In this document: positions 53,864 to 61,339 of the stretch, piece after piece
How positions within the stretch are numbered: position 1 is the first letter of the stretch
Layout: every line of letters begins with the position of its first letter
Origin: an uncultured Acetatifactor sp.
GTDB lineage: Bacteria > Bacillota > Clostridia > Lachnospirales > Lachnospiraceae
Assembly: GCA_949840885.1 (NCBI GenBank)
Contig: CATKYJ010000016.1
Span: 29,575-93,574, forward strand
DNA: 64,000 nucleotides
Direction of reading: 5' to 3'
Notes under the pieces: generated by a model
Databases searched by the model: none
What the model was told of the DNA's origin: nothing
Seen by the model: the letters and a program-made list of their open reading frames with translations, nothing else
Made by a program: the position numbers and the translations under genes

Positions 53864-54814
53864 ATGGATATCCTGGGACAGGGAACGGAGGAGCTGACGC
53901 CGGAACTCATGGAGGGGTTCCTGACTGACCTCCTGGACAGGGGACGCAGCCAGGTGTCGGTAAAGGCGTACCGGAATGCGCTGACGGCGCTCTACACCAG
54001 CCTGCCGGAGGGGAAGCGGGTCACGGCCGCCACAGGGAGCCGGTGGCGCGGCATTCTGGAGGGAGGCGGAGCCTGCCCGCGGACGGTTAGCGCAAGGATG
54101 TCCGTCTGGAACAGCCTCGTCAGGTACTTAGGGCATCGGGACTGGCAGGTGGAGGGGCTCAACTCCTCGGGAGGGGATATCCAGCCGGAACTGACCCGGA
54201 AAGAGTATCTGCGTCTGCTGTCGGCGGCAAAACAGCTAGGGCAGGAGAGGACGTACCTCCTGATCAAGGCGCTGGGCGGGGTGGGGCTTAGGCTCCAGGA
54301 CCTCCCCGGACTCACAGCCGAGGCCGTCCGCGAGGGGATTGTGCGGATTGGAGGGACGTGCAGTGAGAAAACGGCACAGTTGAGGGGCATATGCAGTGAG
54401 GGAGCGGCACAGCCGAGGGGCATATGCAGTGAGAAAGCGGCACAGCCGAGGGACATATGCAGTGAGGGAGCGGTATACCCCGGAAATTCCGGCAGTGAGC
54501 GGGTGCGTATCATCCACCTGCCCGCTGTGCTCCAGAGGGAACTGAGCGGGTACATACAGCGGCGCGGTATCCGCAGCGGCCCCGTCTTCGTGACATCCGG
54601 GGGCAGACCCCTGGACCGGTCCAACATAGGCCGGTGCATCAGGCAGGTAGGCCAGGCCGCCCGGGTGGCGGAGGAAAAGGCCAGTCCGAGATGCCTGTGG
54701 AAAATGTACCAGTCCACCCAAAAGGGGATTCGGGACAACGTGTCCCTGCTCATCGAGCAGGCCTACGAGCGCCAGCTGGAGAGAGAACAGATGGCGGTGG
54801 GCTGGGAGGAGTAG
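53864..54814 (+). CDS. Degenerate tyrosine recombinase-like protein with internal 11-aa repeats
   Basis: N-terminal SAM-like domain and GLRLQDLPGLTAEAV retained; HxLRH is replaced by SPRCL and the C-terminal LGH..Y motif is absent. Confidence 0.75.
   Translation: MDILGQGTEELTPELMEGFLTDLLDRGRSQVSVKAYRNALTALYTSLPEGKRVTAATGSRWRGILEGGGACPRTVSARMSVWNSLVRYLGHRDWQVEGLNSSGGDIQPELTRKEYLRLLSAAKQLGQERTYLLIKALGGVGLRLQDLPGLTAEAVREGIVRIGGTCSEKTAQLRGICSEGAAQPRGICSEKAAQPRDICSEGAVYPGNSGSERVRIIHLPAVLQRELSGYIQRRGIRSGPVFVTSGGRPLDRSNIGRCIRQVGQAARVAEEKASPRCLWKMYQSTQKGIRDNVSLLIEQAYERQLEREQMAVGWEE
54359..54480. repeat. 33-bp in-frame tandem repeat (about 3.7 units) inside the degenerate recombinase gene
   Basis: TGCAGTGAGAAAACGGCACAGTTGAGGGGCATA and three further copies/partials. 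Confidence 0.9.
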
Positions 54815-54978
54815 GAGAAGCCTAAGTACACCGGAGCTGAAGACTTCGGTAAAGTTGTGATCAGGGAGGGGAGGACATGAGGGGGACGATCTTGGCGGGG
54901 AAAGCCCCGCCGGGCCAGAAAGCCCTGCAGTTACAGCCATCGCGGACGGCAGGGCGGAAGAGGAGGCGGTGGGAAATG

Positions 54979-55120
54979 GGCAAACCGTTGGAAATGGCGG
55001 GACGCAAAGCCACAGGGACTAAGGCGCTTTATCAGATGCGGCAGTTTCGGTATCGTTGCTTTACTGACAGGTACCCTTGCTGCAGGCCTCTGGCAGAAAC
55101 AGCTATGTCAGCCTGGCCGC
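54979..55120 (+). promoter_or_regulatory. c-di-GMP-I (GEMM-I) riboswitch-like aptamer A
   Basis: GGCAAACCGTTGGAAATGGCGGGACGCAAAGCCACAGGGACTAAGG ... GTCAGCCTGGCCG. Confidence 0.8.
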
Positions 55121-55131
55121 TAATTATAAAA

Positions 55132-55226
55132 GGCAAACCGCGGGAAACGGCGGGACGCAAAACAAGGGGCCTAAAGCGTGCGCCTGGACACGCGTCACAG
55201 CGCAGGCCACGGCAGCCCGGTCACTG
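55132..55226 (+). promoter_or_regulatory. c-di-GMP-I (GEMM-I) riboswitch-like aptamer B (variant core)
   Basis: GGCAAACCGCGGGAAACGGCGGGACGCAAAACAAGGGGCCTAAAG ... GGCAGCCCGGTCA. Confidence 0.72.
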
Positions 55227-55236
55227 ATTATAATTA

Positions 55237-55330
55237 GCAAACCGTTAGAAATGGCGGGACGCAAAGCTATGGGGGCTAAGGTGTTGGAAGTTCGTTGGAC
55301 AATGCTATGCCAGCCCGGCCGCCGGATACT
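55237..55330 (+). promoter_or_regulatory. c-di-GMP-I (GEMM-I) riboswitch-like aptamer C
   Basis: GCAAACCGTTAGAAATGGCGGGACGCAAAGCTATGGGGGCTAAGG ... GCCAGCCCGGCCG. Confidence 0.8.
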
Positions 55331-55373
55331 TTGCATCCGATTGATTCTTTTTTGCAAAGAAAGGAATGAAACT

Positions 55374-58300
55374 ATGAGACATAAAAAACGAACATACAGG
55401 AGAGGACTGGCTTTGCTCCTTGCCATAGCTATGTGCATCAGCATACCGCAGCTTCCGGCAGCGGCAGCGGAGGCACCCGGCCATGAGCATAATGAGGAGG
55501 GCTGGTCGTGCACCTATGTGGAGGATGAGACGCTTGCATGCGAAAATGCCGAGCACAGCCATACGGAAGAATGCTATGGGGAAGAGGGCAGGACGCTTGC
55601 ATGCGAAAATGCCGGGCACGCACATGAGGCAGAGTGCTATGACAAAGAGGGCGTACTTGCCTGCGGCACCGAAGATCACATCCATGGGAACGGCTGTTAT
55701 GAACAGACTGCGGCGAGCCTTATATGCGGACTTGACGAACACGGCCACACCCGGGAATGCCGTCAGGATGCGGGCCGCTGGGAATGTGTGCAGAATACCG
55801 TTCCTGAGGAAGAGGAAAGCGCCGGCGGGGAAGCAGAAGCGCCTACTGTCGAGGACGTGACGGAAAGCGAGGACGTGACAGAAAGCGAGGACGTGACAGA
55901 AAGCGTAGATAGCAGTATCCTGTCCGATGCGGAGACCCAGGCGGAACCGTCAGATGGCCAGGAGGCTGAGGCTGAGGCAACGGCAGAAGAAGACGCAACT
56001 GTGGTATATGCCGCCGTAGACGAGCTGAATGCCGCTTTTGAGGCTGTGGACGAGATTTTGGAGAGCGGCGACGTCCAGGCCGGCATTGATGCCCTGGACA
56101 ATTATATCGCCATCTACAACCGCCTGTCCCCCGAGGATCAGGAAGCCCAGGCCGAGGCGCTGGCTGCAGCGGTAGCCTATAAGGAGACTTTGCAGGGCAG
56201 CCTGGAGGGCGAGCCGGATGCGGATGTTGATACGTTGGTTTATGTGACATATAAATCAACGATCACTTTTTATCCGGGCGATGGCAGCCCTACCGGAGTA
56301 AATATGTCCGTGGGTGATCACTACCAAGGAAACTGGTATGTAAAATCTATCAGTACAAGCGAAGTTACCTTTGGATCACAGTACGGTGAGCACAATAATT
56401 CGTTTATAATTCCGGCGCCGGAAAAAATTTGGCAGGGGGTATCGAGTAACTATAATACTGTTGCCGCCTACAGTACTGCATTTAATGGTGAGAAGCATAT
56501 TGGAGCCAGTGCTCTGTTGATTTACACCGGCGGACATGCAACCTATAAAAATGTGGTGAATAGCGGTGGAAACCAAGGCAGCGGCACCACACCCTCGAAT
56601 CCGTACGCGAATGTTGTCCATGAGTATTACATGAATGGACAATTGACAGGCAGCATAACTGGGACTTTTTCTTTATCTGCAGGGGCTACTGACAGGGTAC
56701 CAGCCACAAATCTTGGCAGTAGTGTTCCGCGGCAGCCAAATTATAATGGGAATACCTATACTTATAAGAGTGTTAGTCCCAGTTCGATTAGTGTTGCTAA
56801 AGGAGCTACCGGTTACCAAGGTACATTTACCCTGCGGTATGAGCGTACGGAGACCAAGTACTACGGTCAACTGGTTTATCACTCCAATGACAATAGAAAT
56901 CTTACAAGTATGGACAGCGTCTTGGAGAGTAATGGAAACGTGTACACGGTCTGGGTCAAAGATACCAACCCGTTTGCGAGCACCGGAAAGAGGCTCCTGG
57001 GCTGGGACACCAACCCTAATGCAGCCACTCCCGCATATAAGCTGACGAGCAGGTACTCTGTTCCTTGCAATTCTACAGACAGGAACAATCCTACTCAGAC
57101 GCACTTATATGCAATCTGGGAAAACGACAAGGTTACCCTGACCTATCATGCCAATGGCGGCACTAACGCACCTGCTGCTGTGACCAAAGACAAGGGAAGC
57201 AGTGTCGAGATTGCGAGCAAAGGAAACATGAGCCGGCCCGGTTACGACTTTTTGGGCTGGAACACCAACGAGGGTGCGACCGACGCGGATTTTGTGCCAG
57301 GAGATGGAATAACCCTGAACGCCGATACCACACTGTATGCTGTGTGGACACCTGTACCCGTGGCAACCGAAAGGCTGACCGTAAAAAAGGTCTTTCAAAA
57401 TCTGGACGAGATTCCTGATGATTTCTCAATCATTTGGACGGAGACTCATGGAGAGACCGGGGATGTTGTTACCAAAACACTGACCAAGAGCAATGCCGCA
57501 ATTGACGGCAATACCTTAACCTGGCAAGTTCCGCATTTCTTTATAGCGGAAAGTGGAGGTATTAAGCACGATGTGACAGTGACCGAGAAATGCGATGTGG
57601 ATGGGTATACCTACACAACAGCGGTGAACCCCACTGCGTGGAAAGTTAATGGGCATACGATAAGCCGGAAAATTTCCGCTAATGTAGTTAACTCTACTCT
57701 GCTCATTACCAATACCTACACCAAGGACACCCCGCCTGTGGTCACTGCACCAAAACTGACCATCACCAAGACGGCTGATAAATCTGTCGTCAAGGTGGGC
57801 GAGAACGTAGTCTACACCATCACCGTGAGCAACAACGGTAATGCCGCGGCTACCGATGTGGTGGTGACGGATGCTCTGCCCAATGGATTAAGCTGGGACA
57901 GCGATGCTGCGAACAACGGTTCTTACGACAGCGGCAGCCGCACCGTTCAATGGAAAATCGATAGGATTGATGTGGGCGGGAGCGCAACCGTGACACTCAC
58001 AGCCAGGGTTAATACGAGCGGCGAAATCAGCAATACGGCCAGTGCCAAGAGCGAGGAGACTCCCGACCCTGTGCCCAGTGTGCCCGAAGTCATCAAGGGC
58101 GTGAATATGTCCATCAAGACAGACAAGAGCCACGGCGACGTGGATGTGACCACAAAGAACGGTGTTGCCATTGTGCCCTACACCGTGACGGTGAGGAACA
58201 CAGGCGATGACCTGTACGGCCTGGACATCATCGACAAGCTGACAGACATAAAGGTGCAGGAGGGCAACAATACGCTCACCGCGGATGATAGCGTCAAGAT

Positions 58301-60776
58301 CGCCTATACGAATGTCAAGGTAAACGGTAACACCGTAAATGCCGCATTGGATGCACACAACGGCGGCATTGTCAACGCAATCGCCCGTAGTGACGACTTT
58401 AAGGCGAATAATACTGTGACCTTGACCTACGATATCGAGATTGAGAACCTGACCGACAAGCAGATTGTGGTAAGTCTGACGAACACCGCCAAAGGCGGGT
58501 CCTGGGCCAATGCCCCTGCTGTCAGCACATTCCGCATGGCACGCGCGGCGGACGACTACGATGTCACGGACTCGGCATCTACCAGCGTCAGCGTTGGCAG
58601 CGCTACCGTGGTTATCCCGCCAAAGACTGAGAAAGTGAATGTCACTGTCAAGTTCGTAGACGAGGACGGCAGCGAAGTCCCTGACTCTGGAATCACCCTG
58701 GAGGTCGATAAGGGCCAGGACTATGATGTGACCAAGGATACCGAGAGGATTCCCGCAGGTTACGAGGCCAACGGCAATCTTACCGGCGACCCTGTCAAGG
58801 GGAAAGCCGATGCCGACAAGACCATTATCGTGCCGGTGAAGAAAGCGGACACTGCACCTGAAACCACGGTGCTGACGGCCGAAAAGACAGCCGACAAGAC
58901 TTCTGTCAAGCCCGGCGAGGACATTGAATATACCATCACGGTGAAGAATGAGGGTGACAATGCAGCCAGGGGAGTGAAAGTTACCGACGTACTGGATAAG
59001 AACCTGACCTGGAAGAGCGCGGCGCTGTCCGTAAATGACGGTCAGGCGGTAGCGGTTACGCCTGCAGACAGTGTCTACACCATCGGCGAAATCCCTGGAA
59101 AGCAGGGGGAGGAACCTGGAAAGGCTGTACTGACTATCACGGCGACCGTAAATGCGGATACGAATACCGATACGGTTAAGACAATTTCAAACACTGCGTC
59201 AGTGAACTATGAGAACAAGCCGAACAAACCTGTTGATCCGGAGAACCCTGACAAGCCCACGGAGCCCATTGATGACCCTGAGAGCAATCCGGTGGTGATA
59301 CCCGTGGTGCCTGGCGAGGAGCCCGAGAATCCTGAGGAACCTGAAGAGCCCGAGGAGGCTCCCAAGGTGACATGGCTGGACGAAAACGGAGAAATTGTAA
59401 AGCAAATACCGATGCCTGAGGGCGGCGACTACAGCGCCGAGTATCCTGAGGAGAACCCGACGGAAAACGGCCACTGGGGAAATCCGGAGACGGATGAAGA
59501 CGGAAACGTGACAATCCGGTGGATAGTGGATGAGGAGCCCGAGAATCCTGAGGAACCCGAGGAGGCCCCCAAGGTGACATGGCTGGACGAAAACGGAGAA
59601 ATCGTAAAGCAAATACCGATGCCTGAGGGCGGCGACTACAGCACCGAGTATCCTGAGGAGAACCCGACGGAAAACGGCCACTGGGGAAATCCGGAGACGG
59701 ACGAAGACGAGAACGTGACAATCCGGTGGATAGTGGATGAGGAGCCCGAGAATCCTGAGGAACCTGAGGAGCCTGATGAGGAACCCGAGGAGCCCGGTGA
59801 GAATCCCGAAGAGCCTGGTGAGAATCCTGAGAATCCTGAGGAGCCTGGTGAGGAGCCCGAAGAGCCCGGTGAGGAGCCTGGGAGCCCCGAGGAACCTGAG
59901 AATCCCGAGGAGGCCCTCAAGGTGACATGGCTGGACGAAAACGGAGAAATCGTAAAAGAGATACCGATGCCTGAGGGCGGCGACTACAGCGCCGAGTATC
60001 CTGAGGGGAATCCGACGGAAAACGGCCACTGGGGAAATCCGGAGACGGACGAAGACGGAAACGTGACAATCCGGTGGACAGTGGACGAGGAGCCCACAAC
60101 TCCAATTGTGCCCGATAATCCCACCAATCCGGCAGACCCCGCGGATCCGGTAGCTCCGCCGCAGGCGGACGACACACCGACAGCGGCGGATCCCACGCCG
60201 GCCGTGCCTGTACTTCCGGTTGCGGCAGCACCGGCGACTCCCGCGGTGGTGACGCCGACTGTTACGCCGGTAGCGCCGACCGTACCTGCACAGGAGCCGG
60301 AGGAAGAAACGCAGATTCCGGACGAGGAATTGCCTCTTGCGGACGCCGCCCAGGAGTCGGAGGAAAGGGCAGACGCGGAGGAAGCCGAGATTGAAGATCT
60401 GGATGAGGAAGCAGTACCTTTGGCAGCAGGGGACAGCGGCAGGAAGTGGGCGCTTGTGAACTTCGCCCTGATGAACCTTGCGGTCTTTGAATCCCTGATG
60501 CTGCTGATCGGGTACTTCGTCAATACCAAGAAAGCCTCCGAAGAGGAGGAAGAGCAGAAGAAGCTGAAAAAGAAAGGCATCATGCGTCTGATCAGCCTAC
60601 CTGTAGCAGTCATTTCCGTCATAGCTTTCTGTTTGACGGAGGACATCACCCTCCCGACAGGGTTTGTGGACCGCTGGACCCTGCTGATGGCAGTCATCGC
60701 CATTGTGCAGACAGTTGTAGTGGCATTTTCCCGGAAAAAGGGAGAGGAAGAGAATAAAGAAAGGGCAGCCTTGTAA
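55374..60776 (+). CDS. Very large repetitive cell-surface protein (signal peptide, Cys/His repeats, InlB-type, DUF11-type and MucBP-like repeats, Pro/Glu-rich repeats, C-terminal TM anchor)
   Basis: MRHKKRTYRRGLALLLAIAMCISIPQLPAAAAEA signal; ATG 55374 with AAAGGAA SD; track start at 55077 lies inside the riboswitch region. Confidence 0.85.
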   Translation: MRHKKRTYRRGLALLLAIAMCISIPQLPAAAAEAPGHEHNEEGWSCTYVEDETLACENAEHSHTEECYGEEGRTLACENAGHAHEAECYDKEGVLACGTEDHIHGNGCYEQTAASLICGLDEHGHTRECRQDAGRWECVQNTVPEEEESAGGEAEAPTVEDVTESEDVTESEDVTESVDSSILSDAETQAEPSDGQEAEAEATAEEDATVVYAAVDELNAAFEAVDEILESGDVQAGIDALDNYIAIYNRLSPEDQEAQAEALAAAVAYKETLQGSLEGEPDADVDTLVYVTYKSTITFYPGDGSPTGVNMSVGDHYQGNWYVKSISTSEVTFGSQYGEHNNSFIIPAPEKIWQGVSSNYNTVAAYSTAFNGEKHIGASALLIYTGGHATYKNVVNSGGNQGSGTTPSNPYANVVHEYYMNGQLTGSITGTFSLSAGATDRVPATNLGSSVPRQPNYNGNTYTYKSVSPSSISVAKGATGYQGTFTLRYERTETKYYGQLVYHSNDNRNLTSMDSVLESNGNVYTVWVKDTNPFASTGKRLLGWDTNPNAATPAYKLTSRYSVPCNSTDRNNPTQTHLYAIWENDKVTLTYHANGGTNAPAAVTKDKGSSVEIASKGNMSRPGYDFLGWNTNEGATDADFVPGDGITLNADTTLYAVWTPVPVATERLTVKKVFQNLDEIPDDFSIIWTETHGETGDVVTKTLTKSNAAIDGNTLTWQVPHFFIAESGGIKHDVTVTEKCDVDGYTYTTAVNPTAWKVNGHTISRKISANVVNSTLLITNTYTKDTPPVVTAPKLTITKTADKSVVKVGENVVYTITVSNNGNAAATDVVVTDALPNGLSWDSDAANNGSYDSGSRTVQWKIDRIDVGGSATVTLTARVNTSGEISNTASAKSEETPDPVPSVPEVIKGVNMSIKTDKSHGDVDVTTKNGVAIVPYTVTVRNTGDDLYGLDIIDKLTDIKVQEGNNTLTADDSVKIAYTNVKVNGNTVNAALDAHNGGIVNAIARSDDFKANNTVTLTYDIEIENLTDKQIVVSLTNTAKGGSWANAPAVSTFRMARAADDYDVTDSASTSVSVGSATVVIPPKTEKVNVTVKFVDEDGSEVPDSGITLEVDKGQDYDVTKDTERIPAGYEANGNLTGDPVKGKADADKTIIVPVKKADTAPETTVLTAEKTADKTSVKPGEDIEYTITVKNEGDNAARGVKVTDVLDKNLTWKSAALSVNDGQAVAVTPADSVYTIGEIPGKQGEEPGKAVLTITATVNADTNTDTVKTISNTASVNYENKPNKPVDPENPDKPTEPIDDPESNPVVIPVVPGEEPENPEEPEEPEEAPKVTWLDENGEIVKQIPMPEGGDYSAEYPEENPTENGHWGNPETDEDGNVTIRWIVDEEPENPEEPEEAPKVTWLDENGEIVKQIPMPEGGDYSTEYPEENPTENGHWGNPETDEDENVTIRWIVDEEPENPEEPEEPDEEPEEPGENPEEPGENPENPEEPGEEPEEPGEEPGSPEEPENPEEALKVTWLDENGEIVKEIPMPEGGDYSAEYPEGNPTENGHWGNPETDEDGNVTIRWTVDEEPTTPIVPDNPTNPADPADPVAPPQADDTPTAADPTPAVPVLPVAAAPATPAVVTPTVTPVAPTVPAQEPEEETQIPDEELPLADAAQESEERADAEEAEIEDLDEEAVPLAAGDSGRKWALVNFALMNLAVFESLMLLIGYFVNTKKASEEEEEQKKLKKKGIMRLISLPVAVISVIAFCLTEDITLPTGFVDRWTLLMAVIAIVQTVVVAFSRKKGEEENKERAAL

Positions 60777-60853: not shown

Positions 60854-61339
60854 ATGGAAACCAGGAAAAATGACAGCGGCACTGGTTCGGAGAGCATCCG
60901 GCGAAAAGACTGGCTCGGTAAGCGCTTCGGCAATCTCACCGTAGTTTCCTACGATGGCCGGGACGGCGGGAAGCATTACTGGCGCTGCCTCTGCGACTGC
61001 GGGAAAGAAACCAGGTCATGCCAGTCCAACCTGCAGAGCGGACATACCAGAAGCTGCGGCTGCAGGGTAGACCCGGTAAACACCAGGCACTTTGTGGAGG
61101 GCACCTGCCTGGAGAGCATCAAAAGTAAGAAAGTGTTCGCCAACAATACCAGCGGGGTGCGGGGAGTCTATCGGAATAAGAGAACCGGCCGCTGGTCCGC
61201 CCAGATCACGTTCCAGGGCAGGACCCGGTATCTGGGCAGCTTCGAGGAATTGGAGGATGCTGTCCGGGCCAGAGCCAAAGGCGAGAAGATCTTCCAGGAA
61301 TTCCTGGAGATACATGATGTTCCCGGAAAGCAAAAGTAG
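60854..61339 (+). CDS. AP2-domain DNA-binding protein
   Basis: LGKRFGNLTVVSYDGRDGGKHYWRCLCDCGKETRSCQSNLQSGHTRSCGC then NNTSGVRGVYRNKRTGRWSAQITFQGRTRYLGSFEELEDAVRARAKGE. Confidence 0.88.
   Translation: METRKNDSGTGSESIRRKDWLGKRFGNLTVVSYDGRDGGKHYWRCLCDCGKETRSCQSNLQSGHTRSCGCRVDPVNTRHFVEGTCLESIKSKKVFANNTSGVRGVYRNKRTGRWSAQITFQGRTRYLGSFEELEDAVRARAKGEKIFQEFLEIHDVPGKQK

What the first reader, a model, noticed from the sequence alone, without database searches (positions are those of the whole stretch)
54979..55374. Three tandem c-di-GMP-I (GEMM-I) riboswitch-like aptamers in front of a giant surface protein
Three ~100-nt units carry AAACC(G..)GRAA(..GGCGG)GACGCAAA[GA]C..GGG.CTAA and a downstream K-S-CAGCCYGG element, the conserved core of GEMM-I aptamers. 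Units A and C are canonical; B has AAAAC instead of AAAGC. Single and double GEMM aptamers are known; three in series in one leader is unusual and could give steep or graded ligand response. The supplied ORF (start 55077) hides this region because it runs in frame through it.
Basis: partly seen in the sequence, partly recalled or inferred. Interest (0 to 1): 0.88.

Follow-up and report, generated by a model that had tools for sequence, protein, structure and literature searches.

The report
Three-sensor c-di-GMP riboswitch array
Ahead of a giant bacterial surface protein lie three real RNA sensors of the c-di-GMP type, packed so tightly that they must share parts and feeding a single start-of-translation switch; triple arrays are already known, but this shared-strand, one-switch design, found here in several gut Clostridia, looks like an undescribed variant.

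Summary
Three c-di-GMP-I (GEMM-I, RF01051) aptamers lie at 54979-55120, 55132-55224 and 55236-55322, each above Rfam's cut-off, before a 1,800-aa signal-peptide, LPTG-type surface protein (ATG 55374). Covariation across 18 units is strong. What looks new is the anatomy. Units are 11 nt apart, too close for separate P1 helices; unit B's P1 (55119-55129/55228-55238) uses A's 3' strand and C's 5' strand, pocket nucleotides included. No terminator lies between units; one platform follows C. Its CUUUGCAUCC (55329-55338) is complementary to aptamer C's core (GGACGCAAAG) and, through CUUUGC, to GCAAAG abutting the Shine-Dalgarno. The same platform follows 1-4 aptamers in other Lachnospiraceae and Oscillospiraceae. 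First units carry the ligand-contacting G20; later units usually carry A20, the cAMP-GMP signature, yet no cAMP-GMP synthase was found in this genome. Best model: a translational strand-exchange riboswitch, probably OFF with c-di-GMP, with aptamers coupled through shared P1 strands. Ligand, direction and cooperativity are inferred. New variant of a known kind.

The parts
54979..55120 (+). Aptamer A (first), G20 = 54979, C92 = 55120; P3 carries a 76-nt extension (about 55026-55101)
   Evidence: RF01051 38.1 bits for 54969-55057; own model R1, A not used to build it, 70.9 bits for 54979-55120
55121..55131 (+). Linker A/B, 11 nt: 3' P1 strand of A and 5' P1 strand of B at once
55132..55224 (+). 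Aptamer B (middle), G20 = 55132, C92 = 55224
   Evidence: RF01051 60.4 bits; R1 60.7 bits
55119..55129 (+). 5' strand of B's P1 (GCUAAUUAUAA), includes G91, C92 and U93 of A
   Evidence: pairs with 55228-55238, probability 0.83-1.0; duplex -12.0 kcal/mol
55228..55238 (+). 3' strand of B's P1 (UUAUAAUUAGC), includes A20, G21 and C22 of C
55225..55235 (+). Linker B/C, 11 nt; can also form a local hairpin
55236..55322 (+). Aptamer C (last), A20 = 55236, C92 = 55322
   Evidence: RF01051 61.0 bits; R1 86 bits
55257..55266 (+). Core of aptamer C, GGACGCAAAG, target of the anti-core
   Evidence: apo pairing with 55329-55338
55323..55339 (+). Platform hairpin S1: CGGAU (55323-55327) / AUCCG (55335-55339)
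   Evidence: conserved in relatives
55329..55338 (+). Anti-core CUUUGCAUCC: pairs with the aptamer core or, through CUUUGC, with GCAAAG at the Shine-Dalgarno
55354..55359 (+). GCAAAG, copy of the aptamer core overlapping the extended Shine-Dalgarno by two bases
   Evidence: conserved in relatives
55344..55367 (+). Extra hairpin over the Shine-Dalgarno (55344-55353 / 55358-55367), only in this leader and L036
55358..55365 (+). Shine-Dalgarno AGAAAGGA
   Evidence: sequence
55374..60776 (+). Giant surface protein, 1800 aa: signal peptide, List-Bact repeat, DUF11 repeats, FILTED domain, LPTG-type C-terminal anchor

Best explanation
It is a three-aptamer c-di-GMP-I riboswitch with one translational expression platform. 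SHOWN by sequence comparison: three GEMM-I aptamers; linkers too short for separate P1 helices; no terminator-like site between units; one conserved platform. SUPPORTED by folding calculations: without ligand, CUUUGCAUCC after the last aptamer pairs with that aptamer's core (GGACGCAAAG) and breaks the pocket, leaving GCAAAG at the Shine-Dalgarno free of it. INFERRED: when ligand folds the last aptamer, CUUUGC is released and pairs with GCAAAG, which overlaps the first two bases of the extended Shine-Dalgarno (AGAAAGGA), and translation of the surface protein falls (an OFF switch, about 55-60% likely). INFERRED: because B's P1 uses C92/U93 of A and A20/G21/C22 of C, the three pockets are coupled, so A and B change the threshold or steepness of C. 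INFERRED: A20 in C gives a weaker or broader pocket for c-di-GMP rather than a separate cAMP-GMP input.
For: Three aptamers over cut-off with strong covariation. Linkers 3-20 nt, mostly 9-11, in 17 arrays; in triple arrays the middle P1 is strong and the outer ones mostly weak; B's P1 probability 0.83-1.0; complementarity beats shuffles in 7 of 8 arrays. No terminator-like site between units. CUUUGC and GCAAAG kept in 12 of 13 leaders found through their aptamers. With the last unit alone, apo pairing of the anti-core with the core is 0.74-1.0 in 13 of 16 leaders; folding the core costs 1-9 kcal/mol in 13 of 14 leaders and almost nothing if CUUUGC is kept unpaired. Three canonical GGDEF proteins in the genome; no SMODS cyclase.
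Against: No ligand-binding or expression data. Platform pairs are invariant, so they are not proven by covariation; cognate linker strands beat swapped ones only weakly. In longer context the window's own core pairing ranges from 0.09 to 0.99 depending on the 5' end folded. The window and L036 have a Shine-Dalgarno hairpin present in both states. Pseudoknots were not scored. Repression of an adhesin by c-di-GMP is contrary to the usual pattern (own knowledge).
Confidence: 0.58

Rival explanations
1. Same array, opposite direction: ligand binding raises translation (ON), for example by freeing the Shine-Dalgarno from the local hairpin 55344-55367.
For: c-di-GMP usually raises adhesin expression (own knowledge); the B. 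thuringiensis triple is ON (PMC4759541); this leader has a strong Shine-Dalgarno hairpin.
Against: That hairpin is absent in the relatives other than L036, while CUUUGC/GCAAAG is conserved; constrained folding shifts CUUUGC towards GCAAAG at the Shine-Dalgarno in L034, L116, L142, L166 and L203.
Confidence: 0.25
2. Three independent (pseudo-cooperative) riboswitches in a row, as in B. thuringiensis Bc3-5, each gating the gene on its own.
For: Same class and number of units; published surveys describe most tandem c-di-GMP-I riboswitches this way (PMC9481103, PMC12452182).
Against: No terminator-like site between units; 11-nt linkers leave no room for a platform or separate P1 helices.
Confidence: 0.07
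3. A mixed-input gate: A and B sense c-di-GMP, C (A20) senses cAMP-GMP (3',3'-cGAMP).
For: A20 is the known cAMP-GMP signature (PMC9481103) and is strongly enriched in later units.
Against: No SMODS cyclase, and all three GGDEF proteins have the canonical Asp; the base after A20 is G, whereas the Geobacter cAMP-GMP aptamer 4YAZ has A14-C15 (PMC7288161). The genome is only about 89% complete.
Confidence: 0.1

Closest known systems
c-di-GMP-I riboswitch, Rfam RF01051 (GEMM-I)
   Same: Each unit has the GEMM fold, core and C92, over the gathering score
   Different: Three abutting units with shared P1 strands; unit C has A20
Bc3-5 triple-tandem c-di-GMP-I riboswitch of B. thuringiensis (PMC4759541)
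   Same: Three c-di-GMP-I aptamers in one leader
   Different: Bc3-5 units are 160 nt apart, each with its own transcriptional platform, and the switch is ON; here 11-nt linkers and one translational-type platform
Adjacent-aptamer (glycine-type) riboswitches (PMC12452182)
   Same: Aptamers less than 20 nt apart, one platform after the last
   Different: c-di-GMP-I aptamers, up to four, with shared P1 strands
cAMP-GMP riboswitch (GEMM-Ib, Geobacter; 4YAZ)
   Same: A at position 20 in unit C
   Different: Next base is G, not C as in 4YAZ; no cAMP-GMP synthase found in the genome

Membership tests
c-di-GMP-I riboswitch (RF01051) | score over the family's gathering cut-off (35 bits) | tested here: met
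   38.1, 60.4, 61.0 bits
c-di-GMP-I riboswitch (RF01051) | P2 and P3 helices supported by covariation | tested here: met
   12 of 22 pairs with double changes, 0/500 shuffles as high
c-di-GMP-I riboswitch (RF01051) | G20 and C92 ligand contacts | tested here: inconclusive
   C92 in all three; G20 in A and B, A20 in C
c-di-GMP-I riboswitch (RF01051) | binds c-di-GMP | not testable with these tools
   needs in-line probing or ITC
c-di-GMP-I-GGC variant (RF03167) | score over gathering cut-off (59 bits) | tested here: not met
   B 52.9, C 36.3 bits
cAMP-GMP riboswitch (GEMM-Ib) | A at position 20 | tested here: met
   unit C only
cAMP-GMP riboswitch (GEMM-Ib) | a cAMP-GMP synthase in the host | tested here: not met
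   no SMODS cyclase; canonical Asp in the three GGDEF proteins; genome about 89% complete
Pseudo-cooperative tandem riboswitches (Bc3-5 type) | each aptamer has its own expression platform | tested here: not met
   no terminator-like site between units, 11-nt linkers
Adjacent-aptamer riboswitch | aptamers less than 20 nt apart with one platform after the last | tested here: met
   definition from PMC12452182
Adjacent-aptamer riboswitch | cooperative ligand binding | not testable with these tools
   needs dose-response curves

The most novel reading that the evidence does not exclude
A family of c-di-GMP riboswitches with one to four aptamers on one and the same platform, in which neighbouring aptamers share P1 strands so that the pockets are physically clamped together. 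This would give true cooperativity, and the A20 units would be tuned to lower affinity or to another cyclic dinucleotide.
Probability: 0.35. Interest if true: 0.75.

Novelty: new variant of a known kind. Interest (0 to 1): 0.55.

Why it matters
If the model holds, nature offers a series of leaders with one, two, three and four c-di-GMP aptamers on the same switch, which makes it directly testable how aptamer number and strand sharing set threshold and steepness. It also gives c-di-GMP an example of adjacent aptamers on one platform, an arrangement best known from glycine riboswitches, and a simple mechanism: a short copy of the aptamer core beside the Shine-Dalgarno. Such arrays may be under-reported, because abutting units overlap in Rfam coordinates and overlap filters can hide one of them, as probably happened to unit B.

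Tried and rejected
The platform pattern with 2 mismatches matched 213 of 397 genomes, largely by chance, and was replaced by an exact pattern (3 of 397 genomes, 5 loci). RF01051's placement of A's 3' end (55057) was rejected in favour of 55120. A long-range helix closing the whole array (54965-54969 with 55319-55323) was dropped because the other arrays outside L036 that I read lack the matching sequence. Covariation of cognate linker strands was tested and was weak. One paper was fetched by a wrong id and is irrelevant.

Full report
OBSERVATION. Rfam places c-di-GMP-I aptamers at 54969-55057 (38.1 bits) and 55226-55326 (61.0 bits), and a whole-genome scan with the same model adds 55123-55229 (60.4 bits; C16:84696-84802), all over the gathering score of 35. 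The middle unit is missing; it overlaps the third by 4 nt and that tool keeps only the best of overlapping clan members, so this is the likely cause. A fourth GEMM-I in the genome is a single aptamer before another surface protein (L004).

BOUNDARIES AND REALITY. I aligned 18 units from this and related arrays, leaving unit A out. Under the GEMM structure 93.7% of cells pair, 12 of 22 pairs show double changes, 0 of 500 shuffles reach the covariation score, and slid partners fail. The model built from them finds A at 54979-55120 with 70.9 bits (E 4e-15) and a 76-nt extension of P3, B at 55132-55224 and C at 55236-55322. These are structured RNAs, not chance. B's AAAAC core also occurs in relatives. 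C carries A at position 20, where A and B carry G; C92 is kept in all three.

RELATIVES. The same kind of array occurs in three further genomes of the genus (L034, L035, L036, L037), and in Lachnospiraceae isolates, Parablautia intestinalis, Oscillibacter, Oscillospiraceae and other Clostridia. The number of aptamers is one (L048), two (L037, L206, L089, L204, L205), three (window, L036, L034, L035, L116, L125, L142, L155, L166, L203, L109) or four (L158), with the same platform wherever the locus reaches it. L206 and L134 hold the same leader. Where the downstream protein could be read it usually begins with a signal peptide or similar leader; L037 has the same FILTED surface-protein domain as the window's protein, and L034 has a serine-rich adhesin-like region.

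SHARED P1. The stretch between C92 of one unit and position 20 of the next is 3-20 nt, mostly 9-11. Two separate P1 helices do not fit. In the window B's P1 is an 11-bp helix 55119-55129/55228-55238 (probability 0.83-1.0) whose outer pairs are G91(A)-C22(C), C92(A)-G21(C) and U93(A)-A20(C). In triple arrays the middle unit has the strong P1 (-8 to -12 kcal/mol) while the outer units mostly have weak ones. The complementarity exceeds shuffled strands in 7 of 8 arrays, but cognate strands beat swapped strands only weakly (6% of permutations as good), so this is conserved complementarity, not proven covariation. That it couples the pockets is inference.

POSITION 20. First units are G in 17 of 17, non-first units A in 21 of 30 (Fisher p 1.3e-6, though the arrays are related and some are near-identical; the letter of the last L155 unit was read by eye), singles of the genus A in 3 of 35. 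The G/A choice is known to favour c-di-GMP or cAMP-GMP (PMC9481103), and G20 is described as a selectivity factor rather than a hard filter (PMC9262584). The genome has three GGDEF proteins, all with the canonical Asp, no EAL and no SMODS cyclase, so a cAMP-GMP input is unlikely here, with the caveat of about 89% completeness. A20 may serve the pairing with U93 of a preceding unit and weaken c-di-GMP binding.

PLATFORM. No terminator-like site lies between the units on the + strand (likewise in L142 and L203). After C92 of C come CGGAUACUUUGCAUCCG, a short spacer, and GCAAAGAAAGGA before ATG 55374. Of 13 leaders found through their aptamers and read this far, 12 keep CUUUGC and GCAAAG (L004 is degenerate). 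CUUUGC[A/G]UCC is the complement of the GEMM core GGACGCAAAG, exactly so in the G form and with one mismatch in the A form. With the last unit taken alone, the apo ensemble pairs it with that core at 0.74-1.0 in 13 of 16 leaders, and constraining the core to its aptamer fold shifts it to S1 or to GCAAAG at the Shine-Dalgarno in most. Folding the aptamer core costs 1-9 kcal/mol in 13 of 14 leaders, and little or nothing if CUUUGC is kept unpaired, an amount that ligand binding could pay (inference). ViennaRNA cannot score S1 and the GCAAAG helix together as a pseudoknot. In the window and L036 a further hairpin covers the Shine-Dalgarno in both states, so the direction is least certain here.

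COMPARISON. Triples are known: Bc3-5 has ligand-contact positions 160 nt apart (G11, G171, G331), each unit with its own transcriptional platform, and is ON (PMC4759541); 347 doublets and 12 triplets were counted (PMC9481103). A 2025 survey finds c-di-GMP riboswitches enriched as complete tandem units and glycine as adjacent aptamers on one platform (PMC12452182). By that definition this array is an adjacent-aptamer riboswitch. I found no description of shared P1 strands or of this core-copy platform in the papers searched, but most subscription papers are not held.

VERDICT. Aptamers: near certain. One platform: likely. Strand exchange: probable. OFF direction: slightly favoured. Cooperativity and ligand of C: open. 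New variant of a known kind, interest 0.55.

Noticed in passing
window 60854-61339; L204 and L205 upstream of their arrays: A small ORF with a weak AP2-domain match (below the curated cut-off) follows the giant gene; similar AP2-like sequence appears to lie directly upstream of the arrays in L204 and L205 (read by eye).
   Followed up: partly
window 53864-54814: A tyrosine-recombinase-like ORF (weak XerA/XerC matches) with three 33-bp repeats inside (54359-54480) lies just upstream of the array.
   Followed up: partly
L004 (G000:C7) and L048: Single-aptamer leaders before other surface-type proteins share upstream sequence with the window's array, which suggests that arrays grow or shrink by repeat recombination.
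   Followed up: partly
L158:3945-4330: A four-aptamer array whose fourth unit has C at position 20.
   Followed up: no
table, several genomes of the family: CCGCCGGATACTTTGTATCC and near variants recur in many genomes of the family; in the loci fetched no GEMM aptamer was found beside such matches except in the window. Nature unknown.
   Followed up: no
L208 (G000:C4): A GGDEF protein that by eye also carries an HD-GYP-like domain; no EAL protein was found in the genome, so this may be the c-di-GMP phosphodiesterase.
   Followed up: no
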